Assembly: GCF_041261205.1 (NCBI RefSeq)
Contig: NZ_JBGCCH010000005.1
Location: 310,001-374,000 of the forward strand
Direction of reading: 5' to 3'
DNA from: Catenulispora sp. MAP5-51
GTDB taxonomy: Bacteria; Actinomycetota; Actinomycetes; Streptomycetales; Catenulisporaceae
DNA length: 64,000 nucleotides
Below the pieces are notes generated by a model. It ran no database searches. It saw nothing but the letters and a program-made list of their open reading frames with translations, and was not told where the DNA came from. This document shows, in pieces, positions 35,679-53,616 of the stretch (position 1 is the stretch's first letter; every line of letters starts with the position of its first letter). A program made the translations under genes and the position numbers.

Positions 35679-35885
35679 ATGCAGAGGGCTGACCTACTCA
35701 GGGATCTGGTGGCGCGCGGTACCGAAACGAGTCCCGACCGCTGTCGGGAACTCGCGGTGGAGCTGGGACTGCTGGCCTCCGACATTTCCTCAAGCTCCCA
35801 CGGCCGCCGCAGCCTCCGCACCGACGGGCACCGCACCCGCGTCGCCGGCCATCCCGGCGCCGTCAGCCGCCTCGCCCTCCTCTAA
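35679..35885 (+). pseudogene. Small truncated gene after rhaB
   Basis: A 68-residue frame begins M-Q-R-A-D-L-L-R-D-L-V-A-R-G and continues with a natural helical segment to about residue 37 (L-A-V-E-L-G-L-L-A-S-D-I). The rest reads S- and R-rich, and it overlaps the 3' end of the convergent histidine kinase gene, so it is probably the broken start of an older gene. I cannot name the family. Confidence 0.35.
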
Positions 35886-37377: not shown

Positions 37378-40300
37378 ATGAGGTTCGTCCATCGGGACGC
37401 TGGGGTCGAACGGGATATGGAGCTGCGGCTCGGCCGCCAGGACGCGGTGGCCGGGGACCTGGCCACCGCGCTGGGCGGGTACGGCGGCGCGGTGATGATC
37501 GACGGCCGGCTGACCCCGCCGGCCACGCCGTTGAGCGGGTCCGGGCTGGTCATGGGCGCGGAGGTCTCGCTCACCGTGACCCCCGAGGCCGACACCGGGA
37601 CGATGTCCGACCGGGGCTTCGTGCTGCGGGTCGTCGGCGGGCTGGACGCCGGGCTGTCGGTGCCGCTGATGCCCGGCCGGTACAAGCTGGGACGCGGCGA
37701 TCAGGCCGACATCCGGGTCGACAGCCCGGATCTGTCGCGGCTGCACTGCGAGATCGACGTCACCCGCGACGGCCTGGTGCGGGTCCGCGATCTCGACTCG
37801 CGCAACGGCACCGACCTGAACGGCCGGCGCCTGACCGGGCCGGTGCGGGTCGGGCCGCAGGACATCGTCTCGGCGGCCGGCCGTGTTCCCTTCCGGGTGC
37901 TGCCGGTGGCCGACCTCGGTCCGGTGCAGTACGTCAACCCGGCGTTCGAGGCCGGCTCCGGAGGCACTTTGCCCTTCAACCGCGCCCCGCGGCTGGCCGC
38001 CTCGGCCGACGCCGGGCCGGTGAAGCTGCCGCAGCCGCCCAAGCGCTCCGGCTCGCAACCGCTGCGGGTCACCACCATCGTCGCGCCGATCATCCTGGCC
38101 GCCGTCATGGTCGCGATCCTCAAGAATCCCGCCTTCGCCTTGTTCGCGCTGTTCAGCCCGGTCATGATGCTCGGCACCCAGCTGGAGGACCGGACCCGCG
38201 GCCGGGTCGGGTTCCGCCGGGGCAAGCGCGACTACGCCGCGCGGTTGGCCGAGGTCCACGACGAGCTCCAGGAACGCCGCGAGGACGAGGAGGACCGGCT
38301 GCGGGAGGAGTACCCGGACCCGGCCGAGGTCCTGTACCGCGCCTCGGTTCCCGGCCTGCGGCTGTGGGAGCGGCGCAACGGCGCGGCGGACTTCCTGCGC
38401 CTGTCGGCCGGCTCGGCCGACCAGAGCTGGACCCCGCCGGTGGAACACGGCCGCCGAGCCGGATCGGATCAGGAACCTGATCCGGCGATCACCGACGCCG
38501 TCGCCGACGCCTCCCGGCTCAGCCAGGTCCCGGTCGCGGTGAACCTCGCCGACGGCGGCGTGCTCGGCCTGGAGGGCGACCGCGGCGCGGCGCTGGCGGC
38601 CGCGCGGTCGCTGCTGTGCCAGGCCGTCGCCGAGAGCGGGCCGGCCGACGTCGCGGTCGTGGTCTTCGCCGACGACGACCGCATCGCCGACTGGGACTGG
38701 ACCAAGTGGCTGCCGCACGGTGCCGACCCGCGCTCGAGCGCCTCGCGCTACGTCGCCGTCGGCGCCGAGCACTGCGAGACCCTGGCCCGCAGCCTGCTGG
38801 CCGAGCTCGCCGAGGCCAACGCCGGCCCCGGCGGATACGGCGGCGGACGCCCCGCGGACCCGTCCGTCACCGGCATGCCGGCCCTGCTGCTCGTCGTCGA
38901 CGGCGCCACCTTGCTGGAAGGCCGCCCCTGTGCGCTGCGCGACCTGCTCGGCGGCCAGGCCGGGCCGGTGGCCGGGATCGTGCTCACCCGGCGGCTGCCC
39001 GCGCTGTGCACCGAGGTGCTGTCGGTGTCGGCCGACGGCTTCGGCCGGCTGCACCGGGTCGCCTCCGGCCAGCGCGTCGACGGCGTCCTGGTGGCCGGCA
39101 TGACCCGGCACCGGGCGCGCGCCGTGGCCCGGGCCCTGGCCCGGTTCGAGGACCCCGAGGTCCGGGCGGCCGGCGCCGGGCTGCCCGACCGGGTCAACCT
39201 GCTGCCGCTGCTGCACCTGACCGGCGCCCCGAACGGCGCCCCGAACAGCGGCCTGGACGCCGCCCTGGCCGACCGCTGGCGCACCACGGTCGGCACCCTG
39301 CGGGCCCGGGCCGTGCTCGGCGTCACCGACCACGGCGAGTTCGAGATCGACCTCGACGACGACGGCCCGCACGCCCTGTTCGCCGGCACCACCGGCTCCG
39401 GCAAGAGCGAGCTTCTGCGGACTCTGATAGCCGCGCTCGCCGTCGGCGCCGACCCCGAACACCTCACCTTCGCCCTCGTCGACTACAAGGGCGGCGGCGC
39501 CCTGGACGAGTGCGCGCGCCTGCCGCACGTCGTGGGCCTGGTCACCGACCTGGACGAGCAGCTCGGCGAGCGCGCCCTGCGCTGCCTGGAAGCCGAGCTG
39601 CGGCACCGCGAACACGCGCTGCGCGGCGTGGGCCTGAGCCACGTCCGCGACTACCAGCGGCTGCGCGACTCACAGCGTCCCGACCTGGAGCCGATGCCTC
39701 GCCTGGTGGTGGTCATCGACGAGTTCGCGACCCTGGTCAAAGCCCTGCCGGAGTTCGTCGACGCGCTGGTCAGCATCGCCCAGCGCGGCCGCAGCCTGGG
39801 CATGCACCTGGTGATGGCGACCCAGCGGCCCTCCGGCTCGGTCAACGACGCCATCAAGAACAACGTCAAACTGCGCCTCGCGCTGCGCCTGGAGAGCGCC
39901 GCCGACTCCAGCGACGTCATCGACTCGCCGGTGGCCGCCAGCATCGGCAGCCGCCAGTGGGGCCGCGGCTTCTACCGGGTCAGCGCCGGTGAAGTGCTCG
40001 CGGTGCAGACCGCACTGTCCACCGGCATCACGGCCGTGGACAACGCCGCAGGCCGGCTGTCCCTTCTACCCTTCAGGTTGACATCGGGGGAGCGCGCCGG
40101 AGCCGTCGCCGCGCCGCAGCAGGCCGCCGCCGGCCAGCCGACCGACCTGGCCCGGCTGGTCCAGGCCGCGCAGCACGCCAGCTACTCCGCCGGATTCGCC
40201 CAGCCCCGGCGGCCCTGGCCGGACCCGCTGCCCACCGCTATCCCGCTGCACGAACTGGGACCGGCGGTGAAGGGCCTGCAGACCGACAGCACCGGCCTGG

Positions 40301-41790
40301 CGGCCTACGCCCTGCTCGACGATCCGGACCGGCAGGCGCAATACACCGTCGGCTGGGACCCGGCCGTCGGCAACATCCTGATCTACGGCGGCGTCAACTC
40401 CGGCACCTCCACCGCGCTGTCGGCGCTCGCGCTGTCCGCTGCCCTCCCCGAGGCCCCCGACCGCCTGCACCTGTACGTCCTGGACCTCGGCTCCGGCGCC
40501 CTCGCGCCGCTGCAGGGCCTGCCGCACACCGGCGCCTACATCGGCCCCGGCGACCGGCCCCGCCAGATCCGGCTGATCAGGATGCTGCGCGCCGAACTGA
40601 ACACCCGCAAGGCCGGCGGCTCGGTGCGCGAATCCGACGCCGCCGTCGCCGGACCACCGAAGGTGATCGTCCTCATCGACAACGTCGGGTCGCTGCGCTC
40701 GGAGCTGGAGAAGGACTACGGCGGCATGAGCGTTCTGGACGACCTGGAACGGGTCTTCGCCGACGGCCCCGCGGTCGGCCTGTACATCGCCGCCACCGGC
40801 GACCGGCTGGGCGCGATCCCCGGCGCCTGGGGTGCGCTGAGCAGGCAGAAACTGTTGCTGCGCCTGGCCGACACCGCCGACTACGCGAACTTCGACATCC
40901 CCCGGCGCGCGGTGCCCGCCGCGGTGCCGGGCCGCGCGGTGATCGTGGCCACGCGCCAGGTCGTGCAGATCGGCCACCCCGGGGCCGACCTCGCCGCCGC
41001 CGTCGGCGCGGTCGCGCAGCGCTGGACCGGAGCCCCGCGCACCGCCAACAAGGTGCGGCTGCTGCCGGACGTCATCCCGATCGACCGGATGCGCCGCGCG
41101 GGAGTGGCCGCGGCCACCGGCGGCGAACCCTGGTCCATCCCCGTCGGCTTCACCGACAGCGCCCTGGCCGCGGCCGTCCTGCGACTGCACGACCACGAAC
41201 ACGCCCTGATCGCCGGACCCTCGCGCTCGGGCCGCAGCAGCGCGCTGGTCGCGATCGCGCACATGGTCCTCACCGGCGCCGAACCTCCGGCGCTGGTGAC
41301 GTTCACGCCCCGGCGCTCGCCGTTGCGCGACCTCCCGCCGACGGTCATCGGGTGCACCGAGTACTCAGAACTCGAACGCGCCCTGGAGTCCGCCGGGGAC
41401 CGGGCACTCCTTCTGGTTGACGACGCCGACACGGTCACCGACACCCTGGGAGTACTCGACCGGTTCATGGCCAAGCCCGGCCGGCACGTCATCGCCGCCG
41501 GCCGCAACGACGGCGTGCGCAGGCAGTTCGGCCAGTGGACGCAGCGGATCCGTGAGGCACGCTGCGGAATCCTGCTGGTCCCGGACCACGACCACGACCA
41601 CGACCTGCTCGGCACCCCGCTGCCGCGGCAGCACCGGATGGCGCCCCTTCCCGGCCGGGGCTACCTCGTCTGCGACGGCACGATCGAGGGAGTGCAACTC
41701 GTGCAGGCGACGCCGGGCGACTTCTATAACGACCGTGGTAGCGCGGATTTACACCGCTCGTTAGACGACCGGACGAGCGGACGTCCGTAG
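37378..41790 (+). CDS. FHA-FtsK/SpoIIIE ATPase of type VII secretion type (EssC/EccC-like)
   Basis: The 1470-residue protein begins with about 80 residues of beta-rich sequence. An FHA domain follows at 80-180 (Y-K-L-G-R-G near its start, L-S-R-L-H-C-E and D-S-R-N-G-T), which normally binds phosphothreonine. Two hydrophobic segments lie at about 230-262. Three FtsK-like ATPase modules follow. The first is intact: Walker A G-T-T-G-S-G-K-S at 670-677 and D-E at 781-782. The second P-loop has G-G-V-N-S-G-T-S (Thr1010 for Lys) and the third G-P-S-R-S-G-R-S (Arg1286 for Lys). This is how EssC and EccC look, with an active first motor and degenerate later modules. It would drive secretion of WXG100 proteins such as the next gene. 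Confidence 0.88.
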   Translation: MRFVHRDAGVERDMELRLGRQDAVAGDLATALGGYGGAVMIDGRLTPPATPLSGSGLVMGAEVSLTVTPEADTGTMSDRGFVLRVVGGLDAGLSVPLMPGRYKLGRGDQADIRVDSPDLSRLHCEIDVTRDGLVRVRDLDSRNGTDLNGRRLTGPVRVGPQDIVSAAGRVPFRVLPVADLGPVQYVNPAFEAGSGGTLPFNRAPRLAASADAGPVKLPQPPKRSGSQPLRVTTIVAPIILAAVMVAILKNPAFALFALFSPVMMLGTQLEDRTRGRVGFRRGKRDYAARLAEVHDELQERREDEEDRLREEYPDPAEVLYRASVPGLRLWERRNGAADFLRLSAGSADQSWTPPVEHGRRAGSDQEPDPAITDAVADASRLSQVPVAVNLADGGVLGLEGDRGAALAAARSLLCQAVAESGPADVAVVVFADDDRIADWDWTKWLPHGADPRSSASRYVAVGAEHCETLARSLLAELAEANAGPGGYGGGRPADPSVTGMPALLLVVDGATLLEGRPCALRDLLGGQAGPVAGIVLTRRLPALCTEVLSVSADGFGRLHRVASGQRVDGVLVAGMTRHRARAVARALARFEDPEVRAAGAGLPDRVNLLPLLHLTGAPNGAPNSGLDAALADRWRTTVGTLRARAVLGVTDHGEFEIDLDDDGPHALFAGTTGSGKSELLRTLIAALAVGADPEHLTFALVDYKGGGALDECARLPHVVGLVTDLDEQLGERALRCLEAELRHREHALRGVGLSHVRDYQRLRDSQRPDLEPMPRLVVVIDEFATLVKALPEFVDALVSIAQRGRSLGMHLVMATQRPSGSVNDAIKNNVKLRLALRLESAADSSDVIDSPVAASIGSRQWGRGFYRVSAGEVLAVQTALSTGITAVDNAAGRLSLLPFRLTSGERAGAVAAPQQAAAGQPTDLARLVQAAQHASYSAGFAQPRRPWPDPLPTAIPLHELGPAVKGLQTDSTGLAAYALLDDPDRQAQYTVGWDPAVGNILIYGGVNSGTSTALSALALSAALPEAPDRLHLYVLDLGSGALAPLQGLPHTGAYIGPGDRPRQIRLIRMLRAELNTRKAGGSVRESDAAVAGPPKVIVLIDNVGSLRSELEKDYGGMSVLDDLERVFADGPAVGLYIAATGDRLGAIPGAWGALSRQKLLLRLADTADYANFDIPRRAVPAAVPGRAVIVATRQVVQIGHPGADLAAAVGAVAQRWTGAPRTANKVRLLPDVIPIDRMRRAGVAAATGGEPWSIPVGFTDSALAAAVLRLHDHEHALIAGPSRSGRSSALVAIAHMVLTGAEPPALVTFTPRRSPLRDLPPTVIGCTEYSELERALESAGDRALLLVDDADTVTDTLGVLDRFMAKPGRHVIAAGRNDGVRRQFGQWTQRIREARCGILLVPDHDHDHDLLGTPLPRQHRMAPLPGRGYLVCDGTIEGVQLVQATPGDFYNDRGSADLHRSLDDRTSGRP

Positions 41791-41887
41791 CGTTCTGGTC
41801 GTACCGCCGAGGGATTCCACGGCGTACCAATAGCCACCCGGCGGGACCGCGACCAGCGGACCCGCGGACAAGATATGGAGCACCAAG

Positions 41888-42238
41888 ATGACTGATGGCG
41901 GCACCGTCAAGGTCACTGCTGAGGCCCACCTGCACATCGGCCAGCTGATGAACCTCCTCCAGGGACCGCTCGGCGATGTGCTGTCCCAGATCACCTCGCA
42001 CGGCCTGGCGCTGACCGACCCCGCGGTCTGGGAGGGCCCGGCGGCGTCGGTGTTCAGCAGCCAGATCTGGCCGGCCGCGCAGTCGCAGCTGGACAGCGTG
42101 CGCTCCACCCTCATGGAGCTGCAGCAGCAGGTCGGCGGCGTGCTCGGCAACGTCACCCAGGCCGGCAGCGGCCTGCCGGTCGTGGGCCAGCTGCCGGTGG
42201 TCGGCGGCCTGGTCGGCGGCCTGACCAACGGCCTGTAG
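41888..42238 (+). CDS. WXG100-like secretion substrate
   Basis: The 116-residue protein is helical, with W-E-G at 48-50 in the turn between two helices, the hallmark of WXG100 (ESX) proteins. The C-terminal 25 residues are Gly-, Val- and Leu-rich and do not show the usual Y-x-x-x-D/E secretion signal. It is 97 bp after the FtsK-type ATPase gene and is its natural substrate or partner. A strong terminator follows, so this unit probably ends here. Confidence 0.8.
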   Translation: MTDGGTVKVTAEAHLHIGQLMNLLQGPLGDVLSQITSHGLALTDPAVWEGPAASVFSSQIWPAAQSQLDSVRSTLMELQQQVGGVLGNVTQAGSGLPVVGQLPVVGGLVGGLTNGL

Positions 42239-42310
42239 GACTCCCGGCCTCACCCGCCGGATGGAGCGAGCGAGCGGACTGAACTGAACAGCAAGCACCC
42301 ACCCGGCGAC

Positions 42311-42375
42311 GGCGGTGGTGTGGCGGCGCGGAAAGAGCGTGCCGCCACACCACCGCCCCGTCGTGTTTTTGTTTC
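42311..42375 (+). terminator. Strong Rho-independent terminator after the WXG100-like gene
   Basis: A perfect 17-bp stem (42311-42327 with 42341-42357) and a 13-nt loop are followed by GTGTTTTTGTTT. It separates the ATPase-WXG100 unit from the kinase gene. Confidence 0.88.
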
Positions 42376-42420
42376 GCCGGGGATATCGCCGATGTCGTGG
42401 AACGGACGGGAACGCAGGTC

Positions 42421-44484
42421 ATGACACGCCACAGTGGTTCGACGGGTACGGCGCCGAAGGCGGCGAACGCTCCGGAGCGGCCGGAGCGGCCGGAGCACGT
42501 CCCGGGGTACCGGGATCTGACGCGCATCGGGCACGGCGGCTTCAGCGTGGTCTACCGGGCCGTGCAGGAGTCCTTCGAACGCGACGTCGCCCTGAAACTG
42601 TTGACGATCGTCGGCCCCGACGAGGACGCCCGGCGCCGGTTCGAGCGCGAGGTCCGGCTGGCCGGCCGGCTCAGCGACCACCCGCACGTGGTGACGGTGC
42701 TGGACACCGGTACGACCGCCGCGGGCCGGCCGTACCTGGCCATGGACCTGTACGACGGCGGGTCCATGAAGCAGTGGCTGAACCGGCGCGGTCCGCTGTC
42801 CGGGGCACAGGCGGCCGGGGTCGGCGCGAAGATCGCCGACGCGCTGCACGCCGCGCACGCGCTCGGGGTGCTGCACCGGGACGTGAAGCCCAACAACATC
42901 CTGGTCTCCCGGTACGGCGAGCCGGCGCTGGCCGACTTCGGGGTGTCGTGGCTGCTGGACGCCAGCAACTCCAGCTCGGTGCTCGACGTGTTCTCCCCGC
43001 AGCACGCGGCGCCGGAGCTGATGACGCGGGGCGTGCCGACGGCCTCCTCCGACGTGTACGCGCTCGGCTCGACGCTGTACGAGCTCCTCGCCGGCCGGCC
43101 GCCGTTCGGCGCGCCGGGCCAGGACGTGCGCCGGACCATATACCTGGCGCTGAGCGAACCGGCGCCCCGGTTGGAGTGCCCTGACATGCCGGACCTGCCG
43201 GCGGTCATCGCGCGGGCCATGGCCAAGGAGCCGGAGGACCGGTTCCCGGACGCGGCCGCCTTCGGCCGGGCTCTGCGGGCCCTGATTCCCGACGGCCGTT
43301 CGCCCTCGCTGGAGATGGCCGATCCGGCGGCGGCCACGGCTGTGACCACCGGCACCGTCACCGGCACAGCCGCAGCCGCAGCCGCAGCGACGGCCACCGC
43401 CGCGCTGCCACCGGAGCTGGACATCCCCGGGTCGGCCGATCCGTCCCGCTCGGTCGACATGACCGACGCCATGTACCTCTACTCCGGCTCCGGCCGCGAC
43501 GACTACGTTCCGCCGCCGGACGACACCATGGTCCGTCCGGACCGGGTGGACGCCGACGCGCCGATCCCCGGGCCGCGCAGCGGCGGGAGCCGGCGGAGGC
43601 CTGACGACCGGCGGGGACCCGATGACCGGCGCGGCGTCGCGGACGGCGGTCGGGATGGTGGCCGGGACAGCGGCCGAGACGGCGGCCGGGCCCGGCGCGG
43701 CGGGTACGGCGGATCCGGCGGGCGGGCCGCGGTCGGGGCCGACGCGGGCGGCCGGCGCGGCAGGGGCAAGCCGCTCGCGCTGGTCGCGCTTGTGGCTTTG
43801 GTCGCCGTCGGGGCATATGTCCTGGTGACGTCGCAGGGTTCATCGACATCCAAGAACACCGCCGCTCCCGGCCTGACGCCGACCACGGGCAGCACCGGCC
43901 CGGCCAGCACGTCCGCCGCCGCGCACAGTTCCTCCGCGTCCAGCCCGTCGCGGTCGAGCTCCAGCAGTTCGCCGTCGGAGACCCGCCACAGCTCGTCGGC
44001 GGCGCCGAGCCACACGGCCACGAGCACCGCGGCCTCCTCCAGCGCCCCGGGACTGCCGCCGGCGACCTCGGCGACCGCACCGCTGCTTCCGGCGAACTTC
44101 CACCGGTTGCGGAACTCGTCCACCGGGGACTGCCTGGCGCAGTCCGGCGGCGGCGCCGCCCACCAGGGCTGCGCGGACGTCAAGGGACAGGGCTGGGAGT
44201 CCACGGTGCCGCTCACCGGGATCCTCGGGGCCGTCACCGGCCAGGAGGAGTTGGTCAACGGGGACAGCAACGACTGCCTGACCGGCAGCGGCGGCAGCGT
44301 GAGCGTGAAGTCGTGCAGCGGCGGCATGGCGCAGCTGTGGTCCAAGACCGGCGGCTCCGGCGGGGCCACCGAGCTCCAGAACGGCGCCGACCTGCTGTGT
44401 CTGAAGGCTTCGGGCGGCTCGGTGACGGAGGCGGTGTGCGACGGGGACCCGGCCGAGATGTGGGCCGAGGACGGGAACGTCTGA
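42421..44484 (+). CDS. Transmembrane Ser/Thr protein kinase with ricin-like outer domain
   Basis: The ATG at 42421 gives 687 residues (a GTG at 42397 is possible). The kinase domain (about 30-290) has the Gly loop G-H-G-G-F-S-V-V-Y, Lys59, H-R-D-V-K-P-N-N (152-159), D-F-G (172-174) and A-P-E, so it is expected to be active. An R-, G- and D-rich linker follows, then a transmembrane helix at about 450-470. A Ser-rich stalk leads to an outer beta-trefoil-like domain (R-N-S-S-T-G-D-C-L, then L-V-N-G-D-S-N-D-C-L). Kinase and the FHA domain of the ATPase may be functionally linked: kinases of this type feed FHA proteins (inference). Confidence 0.88.
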   Translation: MTRHSGSTGTAPKAANAPERPERPEHVPGYRDLTRIGHGGFSVVYRAVQESFERDVALKLLTIVGPDEDARRRFEREVRLAGRLSDHPHVVTVLDTGTTAAGRPYLAMDLYDGGSMKQWLNRRGPLSGAQAAGVGAKIADALHAAHALGVLHRDVKPNNILVSRYGEPALADFGVSWLLDASNSSSVLDVFSPQHAAPELMTRGVPTASSDVYALGSTLYELLAGRPPFGAPGQDVRRTIYLALSEPAPRLECPDMPDLPAVIARAMAKEPEDRFPDAAAFGRALRALIPDGRSPSLEMADPAAATAVTTGTVTGTAAAAAAATATAALPPELDIPGSADPSRSVDMTDAMYLYSGSGRDDYVPPPDDTMVRPDRVDADAPIPGPRSGGSRRRPDDRRGPDDRRGVADGGRDGGRDSGRDGGRARRGGYGGSGGRAAVGADAGGRRGRGKPLALVALVALVAVGAYVLVTSQGSSTSKNTAAPGLTPTTGSTGPASTSAAAHSSSASSPSRSSSSSSPSETRHSSSAAPSHTATSTAASSSAPGLPPATSATAPLLPANFHRLRNSSTGDCLAQSGGGAAHQGCADVKGQGWESTVPLTGILGAVTGQEELVNGDSNDCLTGSGGSVSVKSCSGGMAQLWSKTGGSGGATELQNGADLLCLKASGGSVTEAVCDGDPAEMWAEDGNV

Positions 44485-44593
44485 GATCTTCATCGAGTTG
44501 CCAACCACCGGATATGAATGGTCCGGTACCTTCGGGGTAGAGCCAACAGGCGCCGGCGACGGACGCCGGAGGAACAGAAGGCGGCGGGACGGC

Positions 44594-45478
44594 ATGGTCA
44601 AGGTTCTGATCGTCGACGACCAGGTGTTGATCCGGGCCGGGATGGCGGCCATTCTGCGCGCCGCGCCCGGCTACGAGGTGGTCGGCGAGGCGTGCGACGG
44701 CACCGAGGCGGTGACCATGGCCGCGCTCACCGAGCCCGACGTGGTGCTGATGGACATCCGGATGCCGGAGATGGACGGGATCGCCGCGACCCGCGCGATC
44801 CTGGGCTCCGGCCGGGAGAACCTGCCGCGCATCCTGATCCTCACCACCTTCGACATGGACCGGTACGTGTACGAGGCGCTGCGGGCCGGCGCCGACGGCT
44901 TCGTGCTGAAGGACACCCCGCCCGAGCGCCTGCTCGCGGCGCTCAAAGCGGTCGCCGACGGCGACACGCTGTTCTCCTCGACCGTGACCCGCCGCCTGGT
45001 GCAGGCCTACGTCACCGCCGCCGGTCTCGACGGCGAACCGCAGGGGCCCGGCCCCGGCGCGGGGCTGCCGCCGGGAGCCGGGCCGGCCTTGGTGCCGCCG
45101 CCGGGAACCGGGGCGGGCACGGGGCCGGGCACAAGGCCGGGGGCGCCGGGGACAGGCCCGGGACACGGGGCCGGGACCGCCGGGGACTGGCCCGCGGCCG
45201 GCTTCGTCCCCCGCTCGCGCCGCCCCGAGGCCGCCTCCTCGGCCGAACGCGCCGCCCTCGCCGCGCTCACCGCCCGCGAGACCGACGTCCTGCGCCTGGT
45301 CGCCACCGGCCTGTCCAACGGCGATATCGCCGAGCGGCTGGTGGTCAGCGAGGGCACGGTGAAGACGCACCTGAACCGCGCGATGGCCAAGCTGAACCTG
45401 TCGAGCCGGGCCCAGGCCGTGGTGCTGGCCTACGAGTCGGGTCTGGTGGTGGCGGGACAGCCGCAGGTGCAGGTGTAG
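44594..45478 (+). CDS. NarL/LuxR-type response regulator with long linker
   Basis: The ATG at 44594 starts a canonical receiver domain (V-L-I-V-D-D, then phosphoacceptor in V-L-M-D-I-R-M-P-E-M-D-G, T-T-F, and K-D). It ends in a LuxR HTH (L-T-A-R-E-T-D-V-L-R-L-V-A, V-S-E-G-T-V-K-T-H-L-N). Between them lies about 75 residues rich in Gly, Pro and Ala, far longer than the usual linker. The gene sits within the secretion locus without its own histidine kinase; the orphan kinase at 35790-37124 is of the matching class and may be its partner (inference). Confidence 0.92.
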   Translation: MVKVLIVDDQVLIRAGMAAILRAAPGYEVVGEACDGTEAVTMAALTEPDVVLMDIRMPEMDGIAATRAILGSGRENLPRILILTTFDMDRYVYEALRAGADGFVLKDTPPERLLAALKAVADGDTLFSSTVTRRLVQAYVTAAGLDGEPQGPGPGAGLPPGAGPALVPPPGTGAGTGPGTRPGAPGTGPGHGAGTAGDWPAAGFVPRSRRPEAASSAERAALAALTARETDVLRLVATGLSNGDIAERLVVSEGTVKTHLNRAMAKLNLSSRAQAVVLAYESGLVVAGQPQVQV

Positions 45479-45619
45479 GAGCCGGCGCCGCCGAACGGGA
45501 CTCCCCGTCCCACTCCGTGGAATCGCAACACGCAACCTTGGCGATAACGGCTCGACCTGTCAGTGGCAGGCATCAGAATATTGGTGTCTTCTCAACGGGT
45601 GCGGGATGGGGGTACAGAA

Positions 45620-46591
45620 ATGGTCAACAGTCTTATATCGGGGTCTCGTGCCCAAGGTGCTTGCGCCTTGGCCGGTGTTCTTCTGGTCGGGTCGCTGGCG
45701 GCGTGCGGCGGCGGGAGCAGCAGTGCCTCCTCCCCGAACTACTCGACCGGCAGCGGTTCCTCCGACACCTCGGCCGAGGTCACCACCTCCTCGCCGAGTC
45801 CCACGACCATGAGCTCGGCCGCCTACGCGCAGAGCCTGACCGCCATCGGCACAGAGCTGGCGCCGGACTTCCAGGCCGTCGCCAATTCCCACTCCACCGA
45901 CGACGTGAAGTCCGCGCTGACCAAGCTGTCGGCGGACGCGCAGACCCTGTCCGACGGGCTGCCCAGCAATCCGCCGGACCCGCTGTCGCCGTCGACGACG
46001 CAGCTGGCGCAGGCCCTGCGGGACTTCTCGACCTCGGCGAACACCACCGCGAGCGACGTCGGGTCGGCGGTGTGCACCTCGGCCTCGGCGCTGGCCGAGT
46101 TCACGCGCTCGGCCGGGGCGACGTCCCTGCGCGGGGTCGCGACCTCGCTCAACTCCGTCGATCCCACCCTCGGCAAGGACCTCGCGGGCTTCCTGCCGGC
46201 GCCGATCGCCGACCAGAACCGGCAGCTGGGCAACGGCCAGGTGCTGCGGCACTCCTCCGGGCCGGGCTCGCTGACCGTCAAGAACTCCGGCACCGACGCC
46301 ATCGTCACCCTGACCAAGGTCGGGACCAAGACCCCGGTCGCCTCGGTCTACGTGCGGGCCAACGCCGACACGACGCTGAGCGACATCCCGGGCAGCACCT
46401 TCGACATCTACGTCAGCTCCGGGAGCGACTGGGACAGCGCCTCGCAGAAGTTCAGCCGGCAGTGCTCGTACCAGAAGACCGACTCGACGTGGGACTTCAG
46501 CGACTCCGACTGGACCCTGACGCTGACGCAGCAGATCAACGGAAACCTGTCGGTGTCCACGCTGAACCCGGGCGACGCGCCGAACCCGTGA
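45620..46591 (+). CDS. Secreted lipoprotein of unknown function
   Basis: The ATG at 45620 follows GGGGG and gives 323 residues with a lipobox S-L-A-A-C (Cys29). After a Ser-rich start, residues 60-190 are helical with many T/S, and the C-terminal part is beta-rich (S-L-T-V-K-N-S-G-T-D-A-I-V-T-L near 215). No family is recognised. It precedes the large exported protein in the same orientation and may work at the cell surface with it. Confidence 0.75.
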   Translation: MVNSLISGSRAQGACALAGVLLVGSLAACGGGSSSASSPNYSTGSGSSDTSAEVTTSSPSPTTMSSAAYAQSLTAIGTELAPDFQAVANSHSTDDVKSALTKLSADAQTLSDGLPSNPPDPLSPSTTQLAQALRDFSTSANTTASDVGSAVCTSASALAEFTRSAGATSLRGVATSLNSVDPTLGKDLAGFLPAPIADQNRQLGNGQVLRHSSGPGSLTVKNSGTDAIVTLTKVGTKTPVASVYVRANADTTLSDIPGSTFDIYVSSGSDWDSASQKFSRQCSYQKTDSTWDFSDSDWTLTLTQQINGNLSVSTLNPGDAPNP

Positions 46592-46680
46592 CGCGGTGCC
46601 GAAGGGCACTGAAGGCGCATCCAGGCGTATCCAGGCGCACTGACTGACACTGGCCGCGAGCGGCAGGACGGTGGGACGCG

Positions 46681-49600
46681 ATGAGCACTCGGACACTGCG
46701 CGGCGCCGTGGCCGGCATGGCCGACCGCCGCCGCCTCTTCGGCGCGGCGGCGGCCGTCGTCCTGGCCGCCGGCATCGGCATCGGGGCCTGGGGCTGGGCC
46801 GGCGGCGGCAGGGCCAAGGCGCCCTCGCAGGTCGTCGTGCCCCGCACCGGCTTCGTGGTCTCCTACTCCGCCGCGGCCTCGCGGCTCACCGGCCTGGACG
46901 CCTCTGACTCCGCCGACCAGGTCCGCGACTGGATCCGGACCGCGCTGGCCGCGCACCTGGGGATGACCACCGCGGCCGTCCGCGACGCGGACTACGACAC
47001 CCTCCCGGTGCGCGACCAGGGCTTCACCGACCTGGCCGACCAGCAGGTGGGCCCGGGCCGCGAGCTCGCGGACACCAGCGGCGTGCTGCATCTGCTGGTC
47101 CCGCAAGGCGATCCGCAGGAGAACCGCACCGTCGGGCTGTTGATGGACCAGTACCGCACCGACCACGGCGCCGATCCCGAGCTGGTCCAGATCCACCACT
47201 ACACGATCGACCAGGGCACGCAGACGGCCGACGTCACCTCCGACCCGATCAGCACCCCCGCCCAGGTCCGGACCGACCACGGCTACGTGAGCATGCCGAT
47301 CACCGGCCTGGACGATCTGGCGACCTTCCTGAAGACCACCCAGTCGCTGTCCGAGCTGTCCGTCCAGGGCGGCCAGGTCACCGCCTCCGGGTGGAAGTGG
47401 CCCGGGGTGCCCTCGGTGCCGATGACCGTCGACGACATCACCGTTCTGCAGAACGGCTACCAGGCGCACGCCGCGGGCACCGGCCTGGCCCCCGGCTTCT
47501 CGCTGGACCCGCTGCCGGCCAAGACCGTCGGCGACATCCGGGCCATGGCCCCCTCGCTGAGCGCCGACGTCGCCGCGCGCCTGCTGTCGAACTCCTGGAC
47601 CGGCTCCCCGTTCAAGTCCTCCGACGACGTCAGGACCCAGGTCGAGAACGAGCTCTACAGCCCCAGCGGCGACCAGGCCGCGCTGAACACCCGGCTCGGC
47701 CTGCCCACCGACCGCACCCAGCTGTGGGCGGTGGAGGAGTTCCTCAACGGCCACACCACGATGAGCCAGGCCCGCTACGACGGCGGCCTGGCCGGGACCG
47801 CCGTCGGCGACTCCCTGGCCTACGTCGACTACGTGACGAAGAACTGGGTCGCCGGCGTCGGCCAGGGCGTGCCGACCCAGGCCGTCGGCGGCTTCCTGGC
47901 CGACCCGGCGGCCGTGACCCCGTGGAGCGAGTGCGCCGGCTCGAACGACCCGACGTCGGAGTCCGGGCGGCTGTGGTTCGGCCGCAACGACAGCGCTTTC
48001 GCCTCCACCGACAGCCAGATCGACATCGGCGCCGAGGCGGCCCGGCTGTTCGTCCGCGACGACGGCCCGAACGGCACCGAGGTCGAGCCCAGCTACTCCT
48101 TCGGCCGGGCCCTGCAGTGGTGGGACGTGCACCAGCAGGACATCGAGGACTACGAGCCGCAATACCAGCGCCTGGACCAGATCATGCGCTGGAGCGGGGC
48201 CCTGGAGTGGCTGACGCACGAGGGCAAGGCGCTGCTGCCGACCGCGGCGCAGACCCCCGCGCCGATCTCCTTCAAGGACTGGTACACCGCGCACAACGAG
48301 CTGCGCGAGCGCGCTCCGATCGACTTCCTGACCCCGCCCTCGGCGACGCAGGAAGCGCTGATCGTCAACCCCAGCCGGGACTACCAGGACTGCGGGTACG
48401 TCGAGATCGAGGGCGGAGTCTCCCTCAGCGACCTCTACGACCGCACCAACGGCCAGAACTACCATCCCGATCTGCCCACCTCGGTCACCCGCGCCGGACT
48501 GTTCGATGCGAAGTCCACCTACGACGACACCTCCGGCACCGGCGAGATCAGCAAGCTGTCCATCGACGACTCCGGGAAGGCCTCCGAACGCGTCGACCGC
48601 ACGCTGTCGATGTCCGGCGACACGGCGAAGGTGGACGTCAAGGCCACCGGCCGCAAGGTCATCCCGCTGGGGGACCTGAAGGTCTGGCGGTCCTCCGACT
48701 CCGACCGGGAGCTCACGTACAACGTCCGCGCCGAGGGGCACAGCGTCCAGGAAGACGTCACGTACGAGGGCAAGGACTTCGGCTCCCTGGACACCAGCGA
48801 CACCGCGAACATCGTCACCGTCCAGTGGAGCTCCGGGGTCGTGGACAAGGCCCGCCGCGCCTTGTCCACGATCCAGGCCAAGCTGTCCAAGGGCACCTCC
48901 AGCACCGTCCCGGCCGCGAGCGACGGCGTGCTGTACGAGATGAAGGGCGCGGACGGGACGGTCAAGGACCGCCTGGGCGGCCCCGGCCAGTCCTGGCTCG
49001 CGGTCACCACCACGGTTCCGGCCGCCGCGGACGCCCTCGGGTTCCGCATCGGCGGACCGGACCCGGACACCGGCGCCCCGTCCTTCATGGACGGCGGCTT
49101 CACGGCCGGACCCGGGCCGCCCCCGGACGGCACCGGCTATCTCAGCGTCCTGCCGCCCTCCGGCGGGCGCCCGGCGTTCGCCGCCTTCGTGGGCCCGCCC
49201 GACCGCTCGGACAAGACCGTCACCGTCAAGACGCTCAGCGGCCGGACGGCGCTGGTGTACGAGGACGGGGACGCCGCCGTCGTCCCGGACGCCGATCCGG
49301 TGCTCGGCGCGGACGGCTCGGTGGAGGGCGCGGCCCTGCTCCGCGACTTCCCCACGATCAAGAAGCTGCTCCAGGAGGCCGGGCAGGCCATGGACGGCAG
49401 ACTGCACGCCGCGGCGCTCGGCGACGACGGCGTCGCCCTGGCCGCCGACGACGGCACGGTGATCCTGGCGCCGTCGGACAGCGACATCGCCGACCGGGTG
49501 CTGCGCGCGCTCGGGCCGGATCTGAGCGGCACGGCGGTCTTCGACATCCTGAAGCAGCACCAGGGCATCCCGGACGAGATCGTGCAGGACGATGCCAGCC

Positions 49601-50064
49601 CACTGACACCCACCGGCGCCCCGGTCACGATGTTCCTCGGCAGCGTGCTGCACATCCCCGGCGTGGACGGCGTCTACTTCAGCCCGGGCCTGCGCGCCGC
49701 CCTGCACCTGGCCGCGGGTCCCATCATTCCGGAGAACCTGTCGGCGACGTTCCAGGTGACGGTGGAGCCGGTCTCGGTCGGCCACGACCCGCGCGCCGAC
49801 AGCACGACGGCGCAGCCGGACATCCGGACCTACGACGGCGCGCAGTGGAATCTGGTGAACACCGCCGGGCTCATGCACGCCACCGGCCAGTCGATGTGTC
49901 CGCCGATCGGCGCGGGGACCTCCGTGCCCGGCGGCGGCACCGGTGCCGGCACCACGCCATCGCCGTCTTCGGCGCCTTCCGGGGCGCTGTCCGGATCGCC
50001 GCCGGCCGCGCAGGGCACGCTCCTGATGGTCAGCCAGGCCGGCCAGGGCCAGCTCGTGTGCTGA
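46681..50064 (+). CDS. Large exported or membrane-anchored protein, unknown family
   Basis: The 1127-residue protein has one N-terminal hydrophobic segment (about 19-40) after three arginines, then an all-extracellular-looking sequence. I find no known domain. Notable parts are T-S-A/D-T-rich beta segments in the second half and a disordered C-terminal tail (residues ~1070-1127, Gly-, Pro- and Ser-rich). Its stop lies 18 bp before the CHAT protease gene, so the two are probably co-expressed. It may be a surface component or an effector of the secretion locus. Long open antisense frames in this gene are codon-bias artefacts. Confidence 0.7.
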   Translation: MSTRTLRGAVAGMADRRRLFGAAAAVVLAAGIGIGAWGWAGGGRAKAPSQVVVPRTGFVVSYSAAASRLTGLDASDSADQVRDWIRTALAAHLGMTTAAVRDADYDTLPVRDQGFTDLADQQVGPGRELADTSGVLHLLVPQGDPQENRTVGLLMDQYRTDHGADPELVQIHHYTIDQGTQTADVTSDPISTPAQVRTDHGYVSMPITGLDDLATFLKTTQSLSELSVQGGQVTASGWKWPGVPSVPMTVDDITVLQNGYQAHAAGTGLAPGFSLDPLPAKTVGDIRAMAPSLSADVAARLLSNSWTGSPFKSSDDVRTQVENELYSPSGDQAALNTRLGLPTDRTQLWAVEEFLNGHTTMSQARYDGGLAGTAVGDSLAYVDYVTKNWVAGVGQGVPTQAVGGFLADPAAVTPWSECAGSNDPTSESGRLWFGRNDSAFASTDSQIDIGAEAARLFVRDDGPNGTEVEPSYSFGRALQWWDVHQQDIEDYEPQYQRLDQIMRWSGALEWLTHEGKALLPTAAQTPAPISFKDWYTAHNELRERAPIDFLTPPSATQEALIVNPSRDYQDCGYVEIEGGVSLSDLYDRTNGQNYHPDLPTSVTRAGLFDAKSTYDDTSGTGEISKLSIDDSGKASERVDRTLSMSGDTAKVDVKATGRKVIPLGDLKVWRSSDSDRELTYNVRAEGHSVQEDVTYEGKDFGSLDTSDTANIVTVQWSSGVVDKARRALSTIQAKLSKGTSSTVPAASDGVLYEMKGADGTVKDRLGGPGQSWLAVTTTVPAAADALGFRIGGPDPDTGAPSFMDGGFTAGPGPPPDGTGYLSVLPPSGGRPAFAAFVGPPDRSDKTVTVKTLSGRTALVYEDGDAAVVPDADPVLGADGSVEGAALLRDFPTIKKLLQEAGQAMDGRLHAAALGDDGVALAADDGTVILAPSDSDIADRVLRALGPDLSGTAVFDILKQHQGIPDEIVQDDASPLTPTGAPVTMFLGSVLHIPGVDGVYFSPGLRAALHLAAGPIIPENLSATFQVTVEPVSVGHDPRADSTTAQPDIRTYDGAQWNLVNTAGLMHATGQSMCPPIGAGTSVPGGGTGAGTTPSPSSAPSGALSGSPPAAQGTLLMVSQAGQGQLVC

Positions 50065-50082
50065 GCCGGACGGGAGCCGACG

Positions 50083-52689
50083 GTGACTGAGAACTTCTTC
50101 CTCGACGGCGGGGAGGTGCTGGCCGAGGCCCTTCAACAGGCGCGGGCGTCCGCCGCCGACGGGACAGACGCCGCCTACGCTCATGTCCTCGGCCTCGTGG
50201 CCGCCGACGACGCCGCGCTGTGGGCGACGCTGGCGGCCGAGCATGTCAGCGTCCTGCGCTCCTGGGGCCGGTTGTCGACAGCCGCTTCCCAGTGCGAGCG
50301 ATACCTACGCGACGAGCGAGGCGCGGCCCATCGCCTGCCGCTGTTGATCGAGCGTGCCCAGGTGCGGTCCGAGTCGGGCATGCATGCCGCTGCCGCCGCC
50401 GACGCGGCCGAGATCCGCGAGGCGGTCGGCCGCGATCCGCGCGCAGAGCTGGACTCCGCAGCCCATGCTCGGCTGCGGCGGGTGGAAGGGCTGGCGGCCG
50501 GCGACCCCGCCACGGCTCGGCGCTATTTGGGCGAGGCGCGCGCCGTGTTCGAGTCCGTCGGCGATGCGGCGGCGGTGGCCGTCCTCGACGCCGATCTGCG
50601 GCTGGTCGCGGCGCGCGGCGGCTCCGACGAGGCGGTGTCGGCGATCCTCGCCGAGGATTCGGATGCCGCGACATCGGTGCCGCGTGCGTTGGCTCGCGCA
50701 CTGGCCCTCAAGGCTCGGCACCGGTACGAGGAGGCGCTTCTGGTCGTCGTGACGGCGCTGGCCTCCGACGGCCTCGATGCCGCATTGCAGCTTCCGTTGC
50801 TGGAAGAACTGGTCGGCCTGCTTGTGGCGCTGCGCCGTGGCAAGGCGCTGAAGGCCCTGAGTGCGGAACTCTCTCACCTGACCTTTATGGAGGCCGGCGG
50901 TTCGGCGGAGGGGACCGAACCGCCGGCCGCACGCTTCCTCAGGGTCCTGCTGACCACGTTCGGCTTGCTGGACCGTGGCGAGGTGCAGCGGGCCCGCGGC
51001 GAACTGGACGCGATCCGGGAGCTGGCCGACTCGGACCGGGACCGGGCGCATTGGCACCTGGCGTCGGGGGAGGTGTCGGTCGCGGCGTTCAAGCGTCGCA
51101 AGGTGGAAGCGGATCTCACGGCTGCGGTGAGTGACCTAACCACTGCCCTTGAACTGGCCAATACGGATCAGCTCCTTGATGTGCGAATCCGGGCCCTGCG
51201 ACTGCTCGGCGAGGCGTTCGAGCTCCTCAAGCAGCCCGATCAGGCCTCGGACCGCTGGGCCCGGGCGCACGCGCTGGAAGAAGAGCTCGTCGCCCGCCAG
51301 GTCAGCGATGAGGTGCGGGCCACGCTGCTGGAGGACATCCCCACCGAGCACGACGAACGGATCCGGGTCGCGGCCGAGCTCGCGGCGTCCGGGCCCGGCG
51401 GCGCCCCGGCGGCCACGGCCGTCGCGGCGGCGATCGTCGCGATGGAGTCGGCGCGCGGCGCCGCGGTCCTGGCCGGCATCGCCCCCGGCGCGGCCGGAGC
51501 GCTGCGCCGGCTTCCCGCGCCCGGCGACGGCCCGGCCGCCTGGCAGTGGCTGCGGACGATCGCCGACGCGACGGCCCGCGACGAGGCGATCTGGATCATG
51601 CACGCGCGCCCGGGGCGGGTGCACCACGGCATCGTCGGTCGCGGGCTGGTGCACCACGTCGATCTGCCGGCGGACCGGGGCGAGCTGGAGAAGCTCGTCA
51701 AGGCACTGCGCAAGGAGTGCAACGAGTACCGGCTCGGCCGGCCCGAGGGGCGCGACCGGGTCTCGCAGCTCATCGAGCGGCTCGCCGCCGGGATCGGGGT
51801 CGAGACGGTGCTCGGCCTGGTGCCGCCGAGGATCAAGCGGCTGGTGGTGGTCGCCGGGGGAGTGCTGTCGGACATTCCGTTGGCCGCGCTGCCGATCAAG
51901 AGCGGTCGGGGTGCTCCCGGCGGTCTGGGCGGTCTGGGCGGTCCGGCTGGTTCGGCCGGTTCGGACGGTGCGCCGGTGCCGATCGTCACCCGCTTCGCGT
52001 TGTCGGACCTGCCGTGTCTGTCGGCGCGTCCGCTGCTCCGTCAGCGGGCTGTCGGCAACCGGGGCTCCCGGGCTTTGATGATCAGCGCCTTCGAAGCCAC
52101 CCCCGAGGATTTCGAAGGGGAACTGCTGCGGACGGACTACCGGCGTGTGCGCATCCTCGGCCACGGCCAGACCGATCCGAAGGACGCCTCGCAGACGTGG
52201 CTCCAGTTCGCGGGCACGAAGAACGAGCGCGACGGCCGGATCCAACCCGGACGGTTCCAGCAGGCGAATCTCACGTCCTGCGGGACCTTGATCCTCGGGG
52301 CGTGCGAGTCGGGGATGGCGCAGCGCGTCGGCCGCGACGAGCGGACCGGATTCGTCCGGGCCGGTCTGCACGCCGGCGCCGCCTCGGTGGTGGCCGCGCG
52401 GTGGATCGCAGAGGTCTCCGTCACCGCCGTCCTGCTGGACAGGTTCGAGGGCTATCTGCGGTATCTGCCGCGCGACGTGGCCTTGCAGCGTGCGCAGCTC
52501 GATGTCCGCGACGGCCGGGCGGTGCCGGCGGGGGACGTGCCCGAGCCGGGGCATCCGGCCTGGTGGGCGTGCTGGACTTTATACGGGGATTCAGGGCATC
52601 AGGTGAAGGCGCCTATATTGCGTGCGTCGGCCCGTCGGCCGGCGCACGTGATCCGCCGCCTGTTCCGCACCGCTGTCCAGACCGATTGA
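50083..52689 (+). CDS. CHAT-domain protease with helical repeat N-terminus
   Basis: The GTG at 50083 opens an 868-residue protein. Residues 1-480 are helical and TPR-like (repeated A-x-x-A-L-x-x-A patterns). The C-terminal part is a CHAT caspase-like domain: the catalytic His694 lies in I-L-G-H-G-Q, and Cys741 in L-G-A-C-E-S-G. Both dyad residues are present, so it should be an active cysteine peptidase. CHAT proteases in bacteria often act in immune or cell-death pathways (known of the family). It is followed after six bases by the TIR-ubiquitin-like gene, a likely partner. Confidence 0.88.
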   Translation: MTENFFLDGGEVLAEALQQARASAADGTDAAYAHVLGLVAADDAALWATLAAEHVSVLRSWGRLSTAASQCERYLRDERGAAHRLPLLIERAQVRSESGMHAAAAADAAEIREAVGRDPRAELDSAAHARLRRVEGLAAGDPATARRYLGEARAVFESVGDAAAVAVLDADLRLVAARGGSDEAVSAILAEDSDAATSVPRALARALALKARHRYEEALLVVVTALASDGLDAALQLPLLEELVGLLVALRRGKALKALSAELSHLTFMEAGGSAEGTEPPAARFLRVLLTTFGLLDRGEVQRARGELDAIRELADSDRDRAHWHLASGEVSVAAFKRRKVEADLTAAVSDLTTALELANTDQLLDVRIRALRLLGEAFELLKQPDQASDRWARAHALEEELVARQVSDEVRATLLEDIPTEHDERIRVAAELAASGPGGAPAATAVAAAIVAMESARGAAVLAGIAPGAAGALRRLPAPGDGPAAWQWLRTIADATARDEAIWIMHARPGRVHHGIVGRGLVHHVDLPADRGELEKLVKALRKECNEYRLGRPEGRDRVSQLIERLAAGIGVETVLGLVPPRIKRLVVVAGGVLSDIPLAALPIKSGRGAPGGLGGLGGPAGSAGSDGAPVPIVTRFALSDLPCLSARPLLRQRAVGNRGSRALMISAFEATPEDFEGELLRTDYRRVRILGHGQTDPKDASQTWLQFAGTKNERDGRIQPGRFQQANLTSCGTLILGACESGMAQRVGRDERTGFVRAGLHAGAASVVAARWIAEVSVTAVLLDRFEGYLRYLPRDVALQRAQLDVRDGRAVPAGDVPEPGHPAWWACWTLYGDSGHQVKAPILRASARRPAHVIRRLFRTAVQTD

Positions 52690-52695
52690 GAGAAC

Positions 52696-53616
52696 ATGCC
52701 GCATCATCCCGACGGCCGGGGGCCGGCCGTCTTCATCTCGTACGCGACGGCCGACCGCACCGAGGTCCTGAAGTTCCACCAGGACCTGCTGGACCGCGGG
52801 ATCGACCCCTTCCTCGACATCATGGACATCCTCCCCGGCGACGACGTCGTGATGAGCATCAACGGCGCCCTGGAGCGCTCGGACTTCTATGTGCTCGTCT
52901 GGTCCGCGGCGGCCCGCGACCGGTACTGGGTCAACAGCGAGATCTCCGCGGCCATGGTGCTGGAGCAGCGCCGCGCGCGTCCCTTCGTGTTCATCGTGCG
53001 CCTGGACGACAGCGAACTGCCTCCGGTCCTGGCCCCGCGCCGCTACCTGGACGCCTTCGGCGGCCGCCGCCATTTCGCCGCCGACCAGCTGGCGGCGGTC
53101 TGGACGCGGGACCGCGCGGTCGGCACCAAGGTCCTGCCCGCCCCGGCCCCGGTCCCCGAGCCGGCACCGCGCGACGAGCCGACGCTGCACATTTACGCGC
53201 GCAACCAGTCGCTCCAGGTCTCGCACGAGGTGCGGATCCCGCACGGCGTCACCTCGCGCGAGCTGGTCGCGGCGATCACCGAACAGCTCGCGCTGCCCAC
53301 CGAGGCCTCGGAGTACGGCGGTGCGGTGGGCGTCCGCTTCGCCTACCGCTACCGGCACGCCGGCGAGTCGCTGACTGAGGACTCCGACGTCCCGCTGGCG
53401 CTCGGCGATGGCGACGTCGTGGACATCGAGGTGGTGGTCGAGCCGTTCGGCCCGGACGGCGCCTTGGCGGACCCGGTTTCGTTCCTGCCGGGGCGCGACT
53501 ATGCGATCCCGCCGGAGATGATCCGGGACTTGTGCCAGAAGGCGATCGAGCATCTGCTCGCGGAGGATCCGGAGGACGATCAGGACCAGGAGGACTGGCC
53601 GGACCAGGAGTCCTAA
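52696..53616 (+). CDS. TIR domain fused to ubiquitin-like beta-grasp domain
   Basis: The 306-residue protein starts six bases after the CHAT gene. Residues 11-145 form a TIR domain: V-F-I-S-Y-A-T-A-D-R at 12-21, then D-F-Y-V-L-V-W-S, with W-V-N-S-E-I-S near 78-84 where Glu82 sits at the usual NADase position. A proline-rich linker follows (149-160). Residues 162-249 read as a ubiquitin-like (EsaB/YukD-type) beta-grasp domain: V-T-S-R-E-L-V-A-A-I near 185, then L-G-D-G-D-V-V-D-I near 236. The C-terminus is acidic. TIR domains in bacteria often deplete NAD+ when activated. The fold calls are by pattern only. Its stop overlaps the convergent NUDIX gene. Confidence 0.82.
   Translation: MPHHPDGRGPAVFISYATADRTEVLKFHQDLLDRGIDPFLDIMDILPGDDVVMSINGALERSDFYVLVWSAAARDRYWVNSEISAAMVLEQRRARPFVFIVRLDDSELPPVLAPRRYLDAFGGRRHFAADQLAAVWTRDRAVGTKVLPAPAPVPEPAPRDEPTLHIYARNQSLQVSHEVRIPHGVTSRELVAAITEQLALPTEASEYGGAVGVRFAYRYRHAGESLTEDSDVPLALGDGDVVDIEVVVEPFGPDGALADPVSFLPGRDYAIPPEMIRDLCQKAIEHLLAEDPEDDQDQEDWPDQES

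What the first reader, a model, noticed from the sequence alone, without database searches (positions are those of the whole stretch)
37378..53616. Stripped type VII secretion-like locus joined to kinase, CHAT protease and TIR-ubiquitin-like genes
Seen: FHA-FtsK triple ATPase, WXG100-like protein, active transmembrane Ser/Thr kinase, response regulator, lipoprotein, a 1127-residue exported protein, CHAT protease and TIR-beta-grasp protein, all on one strand. Known: the Firmicutes T7SSb set has EssC (with FHA), WXG100, a ubiquitin-like EsaB/YukD and the pseudokinase-like EssB; CHAT and TIR domains are common immune effectors. Inference: this is a minimal T7SSb-like machine whose EsaB-type domain was moved onto a TIR protein and coupled to a CHAT protease. 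No EccB, EccD, EccE or MycP gene is in the window.
Basis: partly seen in the sequence, partly recalled or inferred. Interest (0 to 1): 0.85.

Follow-up and report, generated by a model that had tools for sequence, protein, structure and literature searches.

The report
Kinase-gated secretion locus beside TIR-protease module
In Catenulispora, what looks like a pared-down protein-export machine with its own signalling kinase sits next to an apparently separate three-gene set (a large surface protein, a protease and an NAD-cleaving-type enzyme with a ubiquitin-like tail) that may be an undescribed bacterial immunity module.

Summary
The genes are real and in the reported order; the reading as one T7SSb-like machine is only partly right. 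Two modules lie side by side. Module A (FHA-FtsK ATPase, WXG100-like protein, active-type transmembrane Ser/Thr kinase, response regulator, lipoprotein) resembles the actinobacterial T7SSd more than T7SSb; its core recurs without CHAT/TIR in Streptantibioticus and Rothia. Module B (1127-aa anchored exported protein without a clear PDB fold match, CHAT protease with its His/Cys dyad, TIR-Ubl with its Glu) recurs without ATPase and WXG100 in two Frankia genomes. In a class sample, full-length TIR-Ubl and the 1127-aa protein occurred in the same three genomes and contigs. A and B are contiguous in Catenulispora, but unrelated flanks keep their order too, so coupling is unproven. A ubiquitin-like domain probably sits at the ATPase N-terminus (weak sequence evidence), which argues against its move onto TIR. 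In 16 related ATPase loci the FHA phosphothreonine motif is kept in 4 of 5 with a nearby kinase and 0 of 11 without, which suggests kinase gating. Module B, a candidate envelope-linked conflict system, is the more novel part.

The parts
37378..41790 (+). FHA-FtsK T7SS-type ATPase (1470 aa) with probable N-terminal Ubl; the first P-loop (GTTGSGKSE) and DEF Walker B look intact, the 2nd and 3rd P-loops look degenerate
37378..37587 (+). probable ubiquitin-like (YukD-type) N-terminal domain of the ATPase (about aa 1-70)
   Evidence: alignment; 10 of 24 weak PDB profile hits are ubiquitin-like; YukD on homologous N-termini; no Pfam match for the window's own N-terminus
37681..37869 (+). FHA domain with phosphothreonine-binding motif (GR..SRLH..NGT)
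   Evidence: Pfam FHA 2.9e-14; motif meaning as described in PMC11217815 and recalled
41888..42238 (+). WXG100-like protein (116 aa, W-E-G)
   Evidence: no Pfam match; 33% to a Rothia protein with a sub-cut-off WXG100 match
42311..42357 (+). 20-bp-stem RNA hairpin between WXG and kinase genes, terminator- or attenuator-like, conserved in 4 Catenulispora aligned
   Evidence: fold -62.2 kcal/mol, z -6.0; alignment; not listed by the terminator scan
42397..44484 (+). active-type transmembrane Ser/Thr kinase (HRD, DFG), TM about 460-478, C-terminal ricin-type-like end outside
   Evidence: Pkinase 2.8e-40, Ricin_B_lectin 6.2e-6 (below cut-off)
44594..45478 (+). NarL/LuxR-type response regulator
45620..46591 (+). 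lipoprotein (323 aa)
46681..50064 (+). 1127-aa N-terminally anchored exported protein (P1127); lipobox-like cysteine in 18 of 27 relatives aligned (by eye)
50083..52689 (+). CHAT protease with long N-terminal region; His694 and Cys741
52696..53616 (+). TIR-Ubl protein; TIR with Glu82 and C-terminal beta-grasp-like tail (about aa 162-252)
35790..37124 (-). divergent sensor histidine kinase, possible partner of the response regulator
   Evidence: matches in the three relatives whose stretch reaches it

Best explanation
Two neighbouring modules. Module A is a kinase-gated minimal type VII secretion system of the T7SSd type. The transmembrane kinase senses the envelope through its extracytoplasmic end and phosphorylates a threonine partner. 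The FHA domain of the ATPase docks on that phosphothreonine, and the ATPase exports the WXG100-like protein. The response regulator, with the divergent histidine kinase, sets expression. Module B is an operon for a surface-anchored 1127-aa protein, a CHAT protease and a TIR-Ubl enzyme, the last two taken as cytoplasmic. Most likely an envelope or invasion signal linked to the 1127-aa protein leads to CHAT activation; CHAT cleaves a target, possibly the TIR-Ubl linker or tail, and frees the TIR NADase, which depletes NAD and arrests the cell. Shown: gene content, catalytic residues, N-terminal anchoring signals, separate recurrence of A and B, and the FHA-motif/kinase correlation. Inferred: locations of CHAT and TIR, every signalling step, the substrate of CHAT, and any link between A and B.
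For: Two modules: P1127-CHAT-TIR-Ubl recurs in that order in two Frankia genomes without ATPase or WXG matches. Full-length TIR-Ubl (3 of 394 genomes; 38 of 394 had some TIR match) and P1127 (3 of 388) occur in the same three genomes and contigs; without the window's genome the chance is 1.3e-5, ignoring that the two others share a genus. CHAT-TIR gap 1-16 bp in 9 of 9 loci besides the window (8 genomes). The ATPase orthologue in Streptantibioticus sits with a WXG-motif ORF, a kinase and a NarL-type regulator and without B matches; Rothia has ATPase, WXG100-like protein and kinase. Kinase gating: FHA motif kept in 4 of 5 kinase-linked and 0 of 11 kinase-less loci, Fisher p 0.003, or 0.018 if Rothia is counted as degenerate. 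The TIR profile matches NADase TIRs in the PDB and the model their fold; Glu82 in 19 of 20, CHAT dyad in 9 of 9.
Against: A and B keep contiguous order across the 7 Catenulispora genomes that have B (4 whole, 3 cut by contig ends), which could mean joint function, although unrelated flanks keep order too. No terminator was found between lipoprotein and P1127. P1127 is outside the membrane and CHAT/TIR presumably inside; no transmembrane signalling part is identified in B. A single-sequence PDB search found nothing for TIR-Ubl or CHAT. The 16-locus test holds related Streptomyces loci and was read by eye; Embleya breaks it. Only three module B contexts independent of each other at genome level beyond close relatives (window genus, two Frankia) were read. 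The PADLOC kinase models of PD-T4-6 match the module A kinase (1e-63), which may be generic kinase similarity or a defence role for A.
Confidence: 0.55

Rival explanations
1. One integrated system: the secretion ATPase senses attack or exports a signal, and CHAT/TIR-Ubl are its death effectors, with the TIR Ubl docking on the ATPase.
For: Fixed order in 7 of 7 Catenulispora genomes with module B as far as contigs reach; same strand; Ubl-like domains probable on both ATPase and TIR.
Against: 0 of 15 other loci of the ATPase family carry CHAT/TIR/P1127 matches; 0 of 2 Frankia B loci carry ATPase or WXG matches; unrelated neighbours keep order too. C. subtropica has the ATPase on a 70,619-base contig whose length is not in the TIR list (51 of 51 shown) nor the P1127 list (120 of 153 shown). 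The two Ubl profiles do not match specifically (hhalign probability 22).
Confidence: 0.2
2. The 1127-aa protein is the envelope conduit of the secretion system (a TsdI- or EsaA-like part) and only CHAT/TIR-Ubl are separate.
For: Large anchored extracytoplasmic protein beside the lipoprotein and ATPase.
Against: In Frankia it lies with CHAT/TIR-Ubl and without ATPase matches; a crude hydropathy scan shows one N-terminal TM and no C-terminal one, unlike TsdI as described in PMC11217815.
Confidence: 0.1
3. Module B is not immunity but developmental or housekeeping signalling (NAD- or protease-based control in a mycelial bacterium).
For: No PADLOC match for CHAT or P1127 and only partial TIR matches; the near flanks that were scanned hold sugar-metabolism and regulator genes; kept in 7 of 10 sampled Catenulispora.
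Against: Patchy distribution (3 of 388 and 3 of 394 class genomes); CHAT and NADase-type TIR are typical conflict effectors (recalled).
Confidence: 0.15

Closest known systems
T7SSd (Garrett, Higginson and Palmer 2024, PMC11217815; abstract, sections 7 and 9 and passages read)
   Same: Actinobacterial; FHA-bearing ATPase with conserved phosphothreonine site, WXG100-type protein and active-type transmembrane kinase; no free Ubl gene
   Different: Probable Ubl fused to the ATPase; no TsdI-like protein (signal peptide, C-terminal TM, Ig-like); response regulator and lipoprotein added. The words Streptomyces and Catenulispora do not occur in its main text
T7SSb (EssC/EssB/EsaB)
   Same: FHA-bearing ATPase, WXG100-type protein, kinase-fold membrane protein
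   Different: Kinase is active-type, FHA motif kept, no free EsaB called in the locus; EssC model below cut-off
ESX-type T7SSa of the same genome
   Same: FtsK ATPase and WXG100
   Different: No Pfam FHA match on the L088 ATPase, EccE beside it (EccB and EccD not found among the ten ORFs tested). PMC4791881 (passages read) marks four ESX clusters for C. acidiphila
EACC1 and ternary conflict systems (Kaur et al. 2020, PMC7159879; passages read)
   Same: Membrane component plus caspase-superfamily or TIR effectors in multicellular bacteria
   Different: No EACC1-named match among the proteins; a large extracytoplasmic protein and TIR-Ubl instead
SPARTA TIR and AbTir NADases

Membership tests
T7SSd | FHA-bearing FtsK ATPase with conserved phosphothreonine site (TsdC) | tested here: met
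   kinship to TsdC itself was not tested
T7SSd | WXG100 protein (TsdA) | tested here: inconclusive
   WXG motif and 33% identity to a Rothia protein with a sub-cut-off WXG100 match, but no Pfam match itself
T7SSd | active-type transmembrane Ser/Thr kinase (TsdD) | tested here: met
   HRD, DFG and one predicted TM
T7SSd | TsdH, short single-TM protein | tested here: inconclusive
   none among called genes of 80 aa or more; smaller ORFs not examined
T7SSd | TsdI, signal peptide and C-terminal TM, Ig-like repeats | tested here: not met
   P1127 shows only an N-terminal TM in a crude hydropathy scan; no other large exported protein in the locus; Ig-like repeats themselves not settled
T7SSb | EssC above the curated cut-off | tested here: not met
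   477 against 778 bits
T7SSb | EssB pseudokinase | tested here: not met
   the locus kinase keeps HRD and DFG
T7SSb | free-standing EsaB/YukD | tested here: not met
   no such gene of 80 aa or more called in the locus; a probable YukD-like domain is fused to the ATPase
T7SSb | EsaA and EssA | tested here: inconclusive
   no Pfam or NCBIfam match to either among the locus proteins scanned; divergent forms not excluded
T7SSa | EccB/EccD/EccE/MycP at the locus | tested here: not met
   no match among the locus and near-flank proteins scanned
NADase-type TIR | TIR fold with the Glu of the active site (position recalled) | tested here: met
   Glu82 in 19 of 20
NADase-type TIR | NAD cleavage | not testable with these tools
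   -
CHAT protease | His/Cys dyad | tested here: met
   Pfam CHAT 1.1e-21; dyad in 9 of 9
Ubiquitin-like domain on TIR | beta-grasp fold | tested here: inconclusive
   strand-helix order in the model; weak SUMO/LGG-2/ubiquitin profile hits, 5 of 5 listed, E 0.03-1.2; the domain was not folded or searched alone

The most novel reading that the evidence does not exclude
The surface protein-CHAT-TIR-Ubl set is an undescribed actinobacterial immune system. A large surface-anchored sensor with a fold not matched in the PDB triggers a caspase-like protease that removes a ubiquitin-like tail from a TIR NADase; in Catenulispora it has become wired to a kinase-gated secretion machine whose ATPase carries its own Ubl.
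Probability: 0.2. Interest if true: 0.85.

Novelty: new variant of a known kind. Interest (0 to 1): 0.55.

Why it matters
It suggests where the missing ubiquitin-like part of actinobacterial minimal T7SS may be (fused to the ATPase) and gives a sequence test for kinase gating through FHA. It also singles out a compact protease-TIR-Ubl module whose large surface protein has no recognised solved relative, which makes outside-in triggering of a TIR response testable in actinomycetes.

Tried and rejected

In some searches the lipoprotein query was one base out of frame; its rows are dropped and replaced, which finds it in 5 further Catenulispora genomes (6 loci) and not in L025, the two Frankia loci, Streptantibioticus or Rothia. 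Lipoprotein gaps and the L063 P1127-CHAT gap are unreliable and not used. The ORF first taken as the WXG gene of own-genome paralogue L084 gave no family and is probably the wrong frame; the WXG100 hit there is. A contig length of 8,854 shared by hits of all three protein searches is taken as coincidence, since the genes would not fit on it.

Full report
Observation. The window lies in a Catenulispora-like genome of 10.9 Mb. Pfam finds FtsK_SpoIIIE and FHA in the ATPase, Pkinase in the kinase, CHAT and TIR and a NarL-type regulator. The lipoprotein and the 1127-aa protein (P1127) match no Pfam family at E<=0.1. The 709-aa ORF over 44518-46647 is a wrong-frame artefact. A histidine kinase lies divergently upstream.

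Module A. The ATPase has one intact-looking P-loop and two degenerate ones. Its EssC score is 477 bits against a cut-off of 778; the EccCa and EccCb domain models score 371 and 305, also below their cut-offs. The first 70 residues are conserved across relatives. A profile of them finds only weak PDB matches, 10 of 24 of which are ubiquitin-like (SAMP2, ISG15-type, BAG1, RAD23; E 0.03-1.5). Of ten N-termini of ATPase relatives, five give Pfam YukD as best match (best E 0.00026), and YukD also matches the N-terminus of one of the genome's own paralogues (0.0055); all are below the curated cut-off. The window's own N-terminus and its closest relative tested give none. So a YukD-like part fused to the ATPase is the likeliest reading, but not proven; the TIR tail gives no YukD match.

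FHA and kinase. I compared 16 loci: the window, 2 own-genome paralogues and 13 plasmid loci from 22 matching records, of which 20 were listed and several are near-duplicates. A match to the kinase domain occurs in 5 of 16 stretches. The phosphothreonine motif is kept in the window, Streptantibioticus and Arthrobacter, mostly kept in Rothia, and degenerate in Embleya; it is degenerate in 11 of 11 kinase-less loci (p 0.003, or 0.018 with Rothia counted against). Motif calls were made by eye on printed N-termini, and related Streptomyces loci are not independent. The pattern fits the suggestion for T7SSd in PMC11217815 that threonine phosphorylation may control the system.

Module B. In the genus, P1127 and TIR-Ubl are each found in 7 of 10 genomes, the window's own included; the three without are 77-90% complete. 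They lie on the same contigs, in the order P1127-CHAT-TIR-Ubl, with no match to the ATPase or WXG protein; in L060 a kinase match lies on the other strand beyond TIR-Ubl. Protein databases show 153 P1127 matches (120 listed) with names from several actinomycete genera but only 51 TIR-Ubl matches, so P1127 may also have other partners. Window P1127 has an N-terminal TM; 18 of 27 aligned rows have a lipobox-like cysteine by eye. The model is confident (pLDDT 82.1, pTM 0.83), but no PDB fold stands out.

Are A and B one system? In Catenulispora the full order is seen in 4 genomes (window, G005, G013, G007/L026) and the visible part agrees in 3 more (G012, G008/L024, G006/L025). But NUDIX and HTH genes downstream, and FGGY upstream in the two genomes where the stretch reached it, keep place as well, so this is background synteny. 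Among ATPase relatives (120 of 225 listed), none of the 114 contig lengths outside the top six Catenulispora hits is shared with TIR or listed P1127 hits except 8,854, taken as coincidence; each entry shows only its longest contig. The WXG-kinase gap holds a strong conserved hairpin; no terminator was found between A and B.

Literature. Six full-text searches were answered. Among the listed titles none names a CHAT/TIR-Ubl/large surface protein set or this Catenulispora locus. PMC11217815 was read in abstract, sections 7 and 9 and passages; PMC4791881, PMC7159879 and PMC8195603 in passages only. Subscription papers are mostly not held, so novelty in print is not proven.

Verdict. A new variant of a T7SSd-like machine next to an apparently independent protease-TIR-Ubl module; the second is the more novel. 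The signalling steps are inference.

Noticed in passing
window 42239-42396: The WXG-kinase intergenic stretch is strongly conserved in 4 Catenulispora (mean column identity 88%), including a 20-bp-stem hairpin with one paired change and some unpaired ones by eye.
   Followed up: partly
window 39000-39078: ARAGORN calls a tRNA-Ala inside the ATPase gene; most likely a false positive in GC-rich coding DNA.
   Followed up: no
P0137: A metagenomic P1127 relative runs on into an NB-ARC/TPR protein; possibly another effector partner, possibly a misassembly.
   Followed up: no
G000 C2:93344-97573 and C8:87377-91696: Two further ATPase loci of this family in the same genome, without a kinase match nearby and with degenerate FHA motifs.
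   Followed up: partly
L091 (G000:C6:30000-49900): A FHA-FtsK in a 941-aa open frame with two Ser/Thr kinase matches beside it.
   Followed up: no
window 53613-54932: A NUDIX ORF ends against TIR-Ubl on the opposite strand and is conserved in the Catenulispora loci read; some NUDIX enzymes act on ADP-ribose, a TIR product (recalled).
   Followed up: no
window 42397-44484: The kinase matches many PADLOC PD-T4-6 defence-kinase models (best 1e-63); this may be generic kinase similarity.
   Followed up: no
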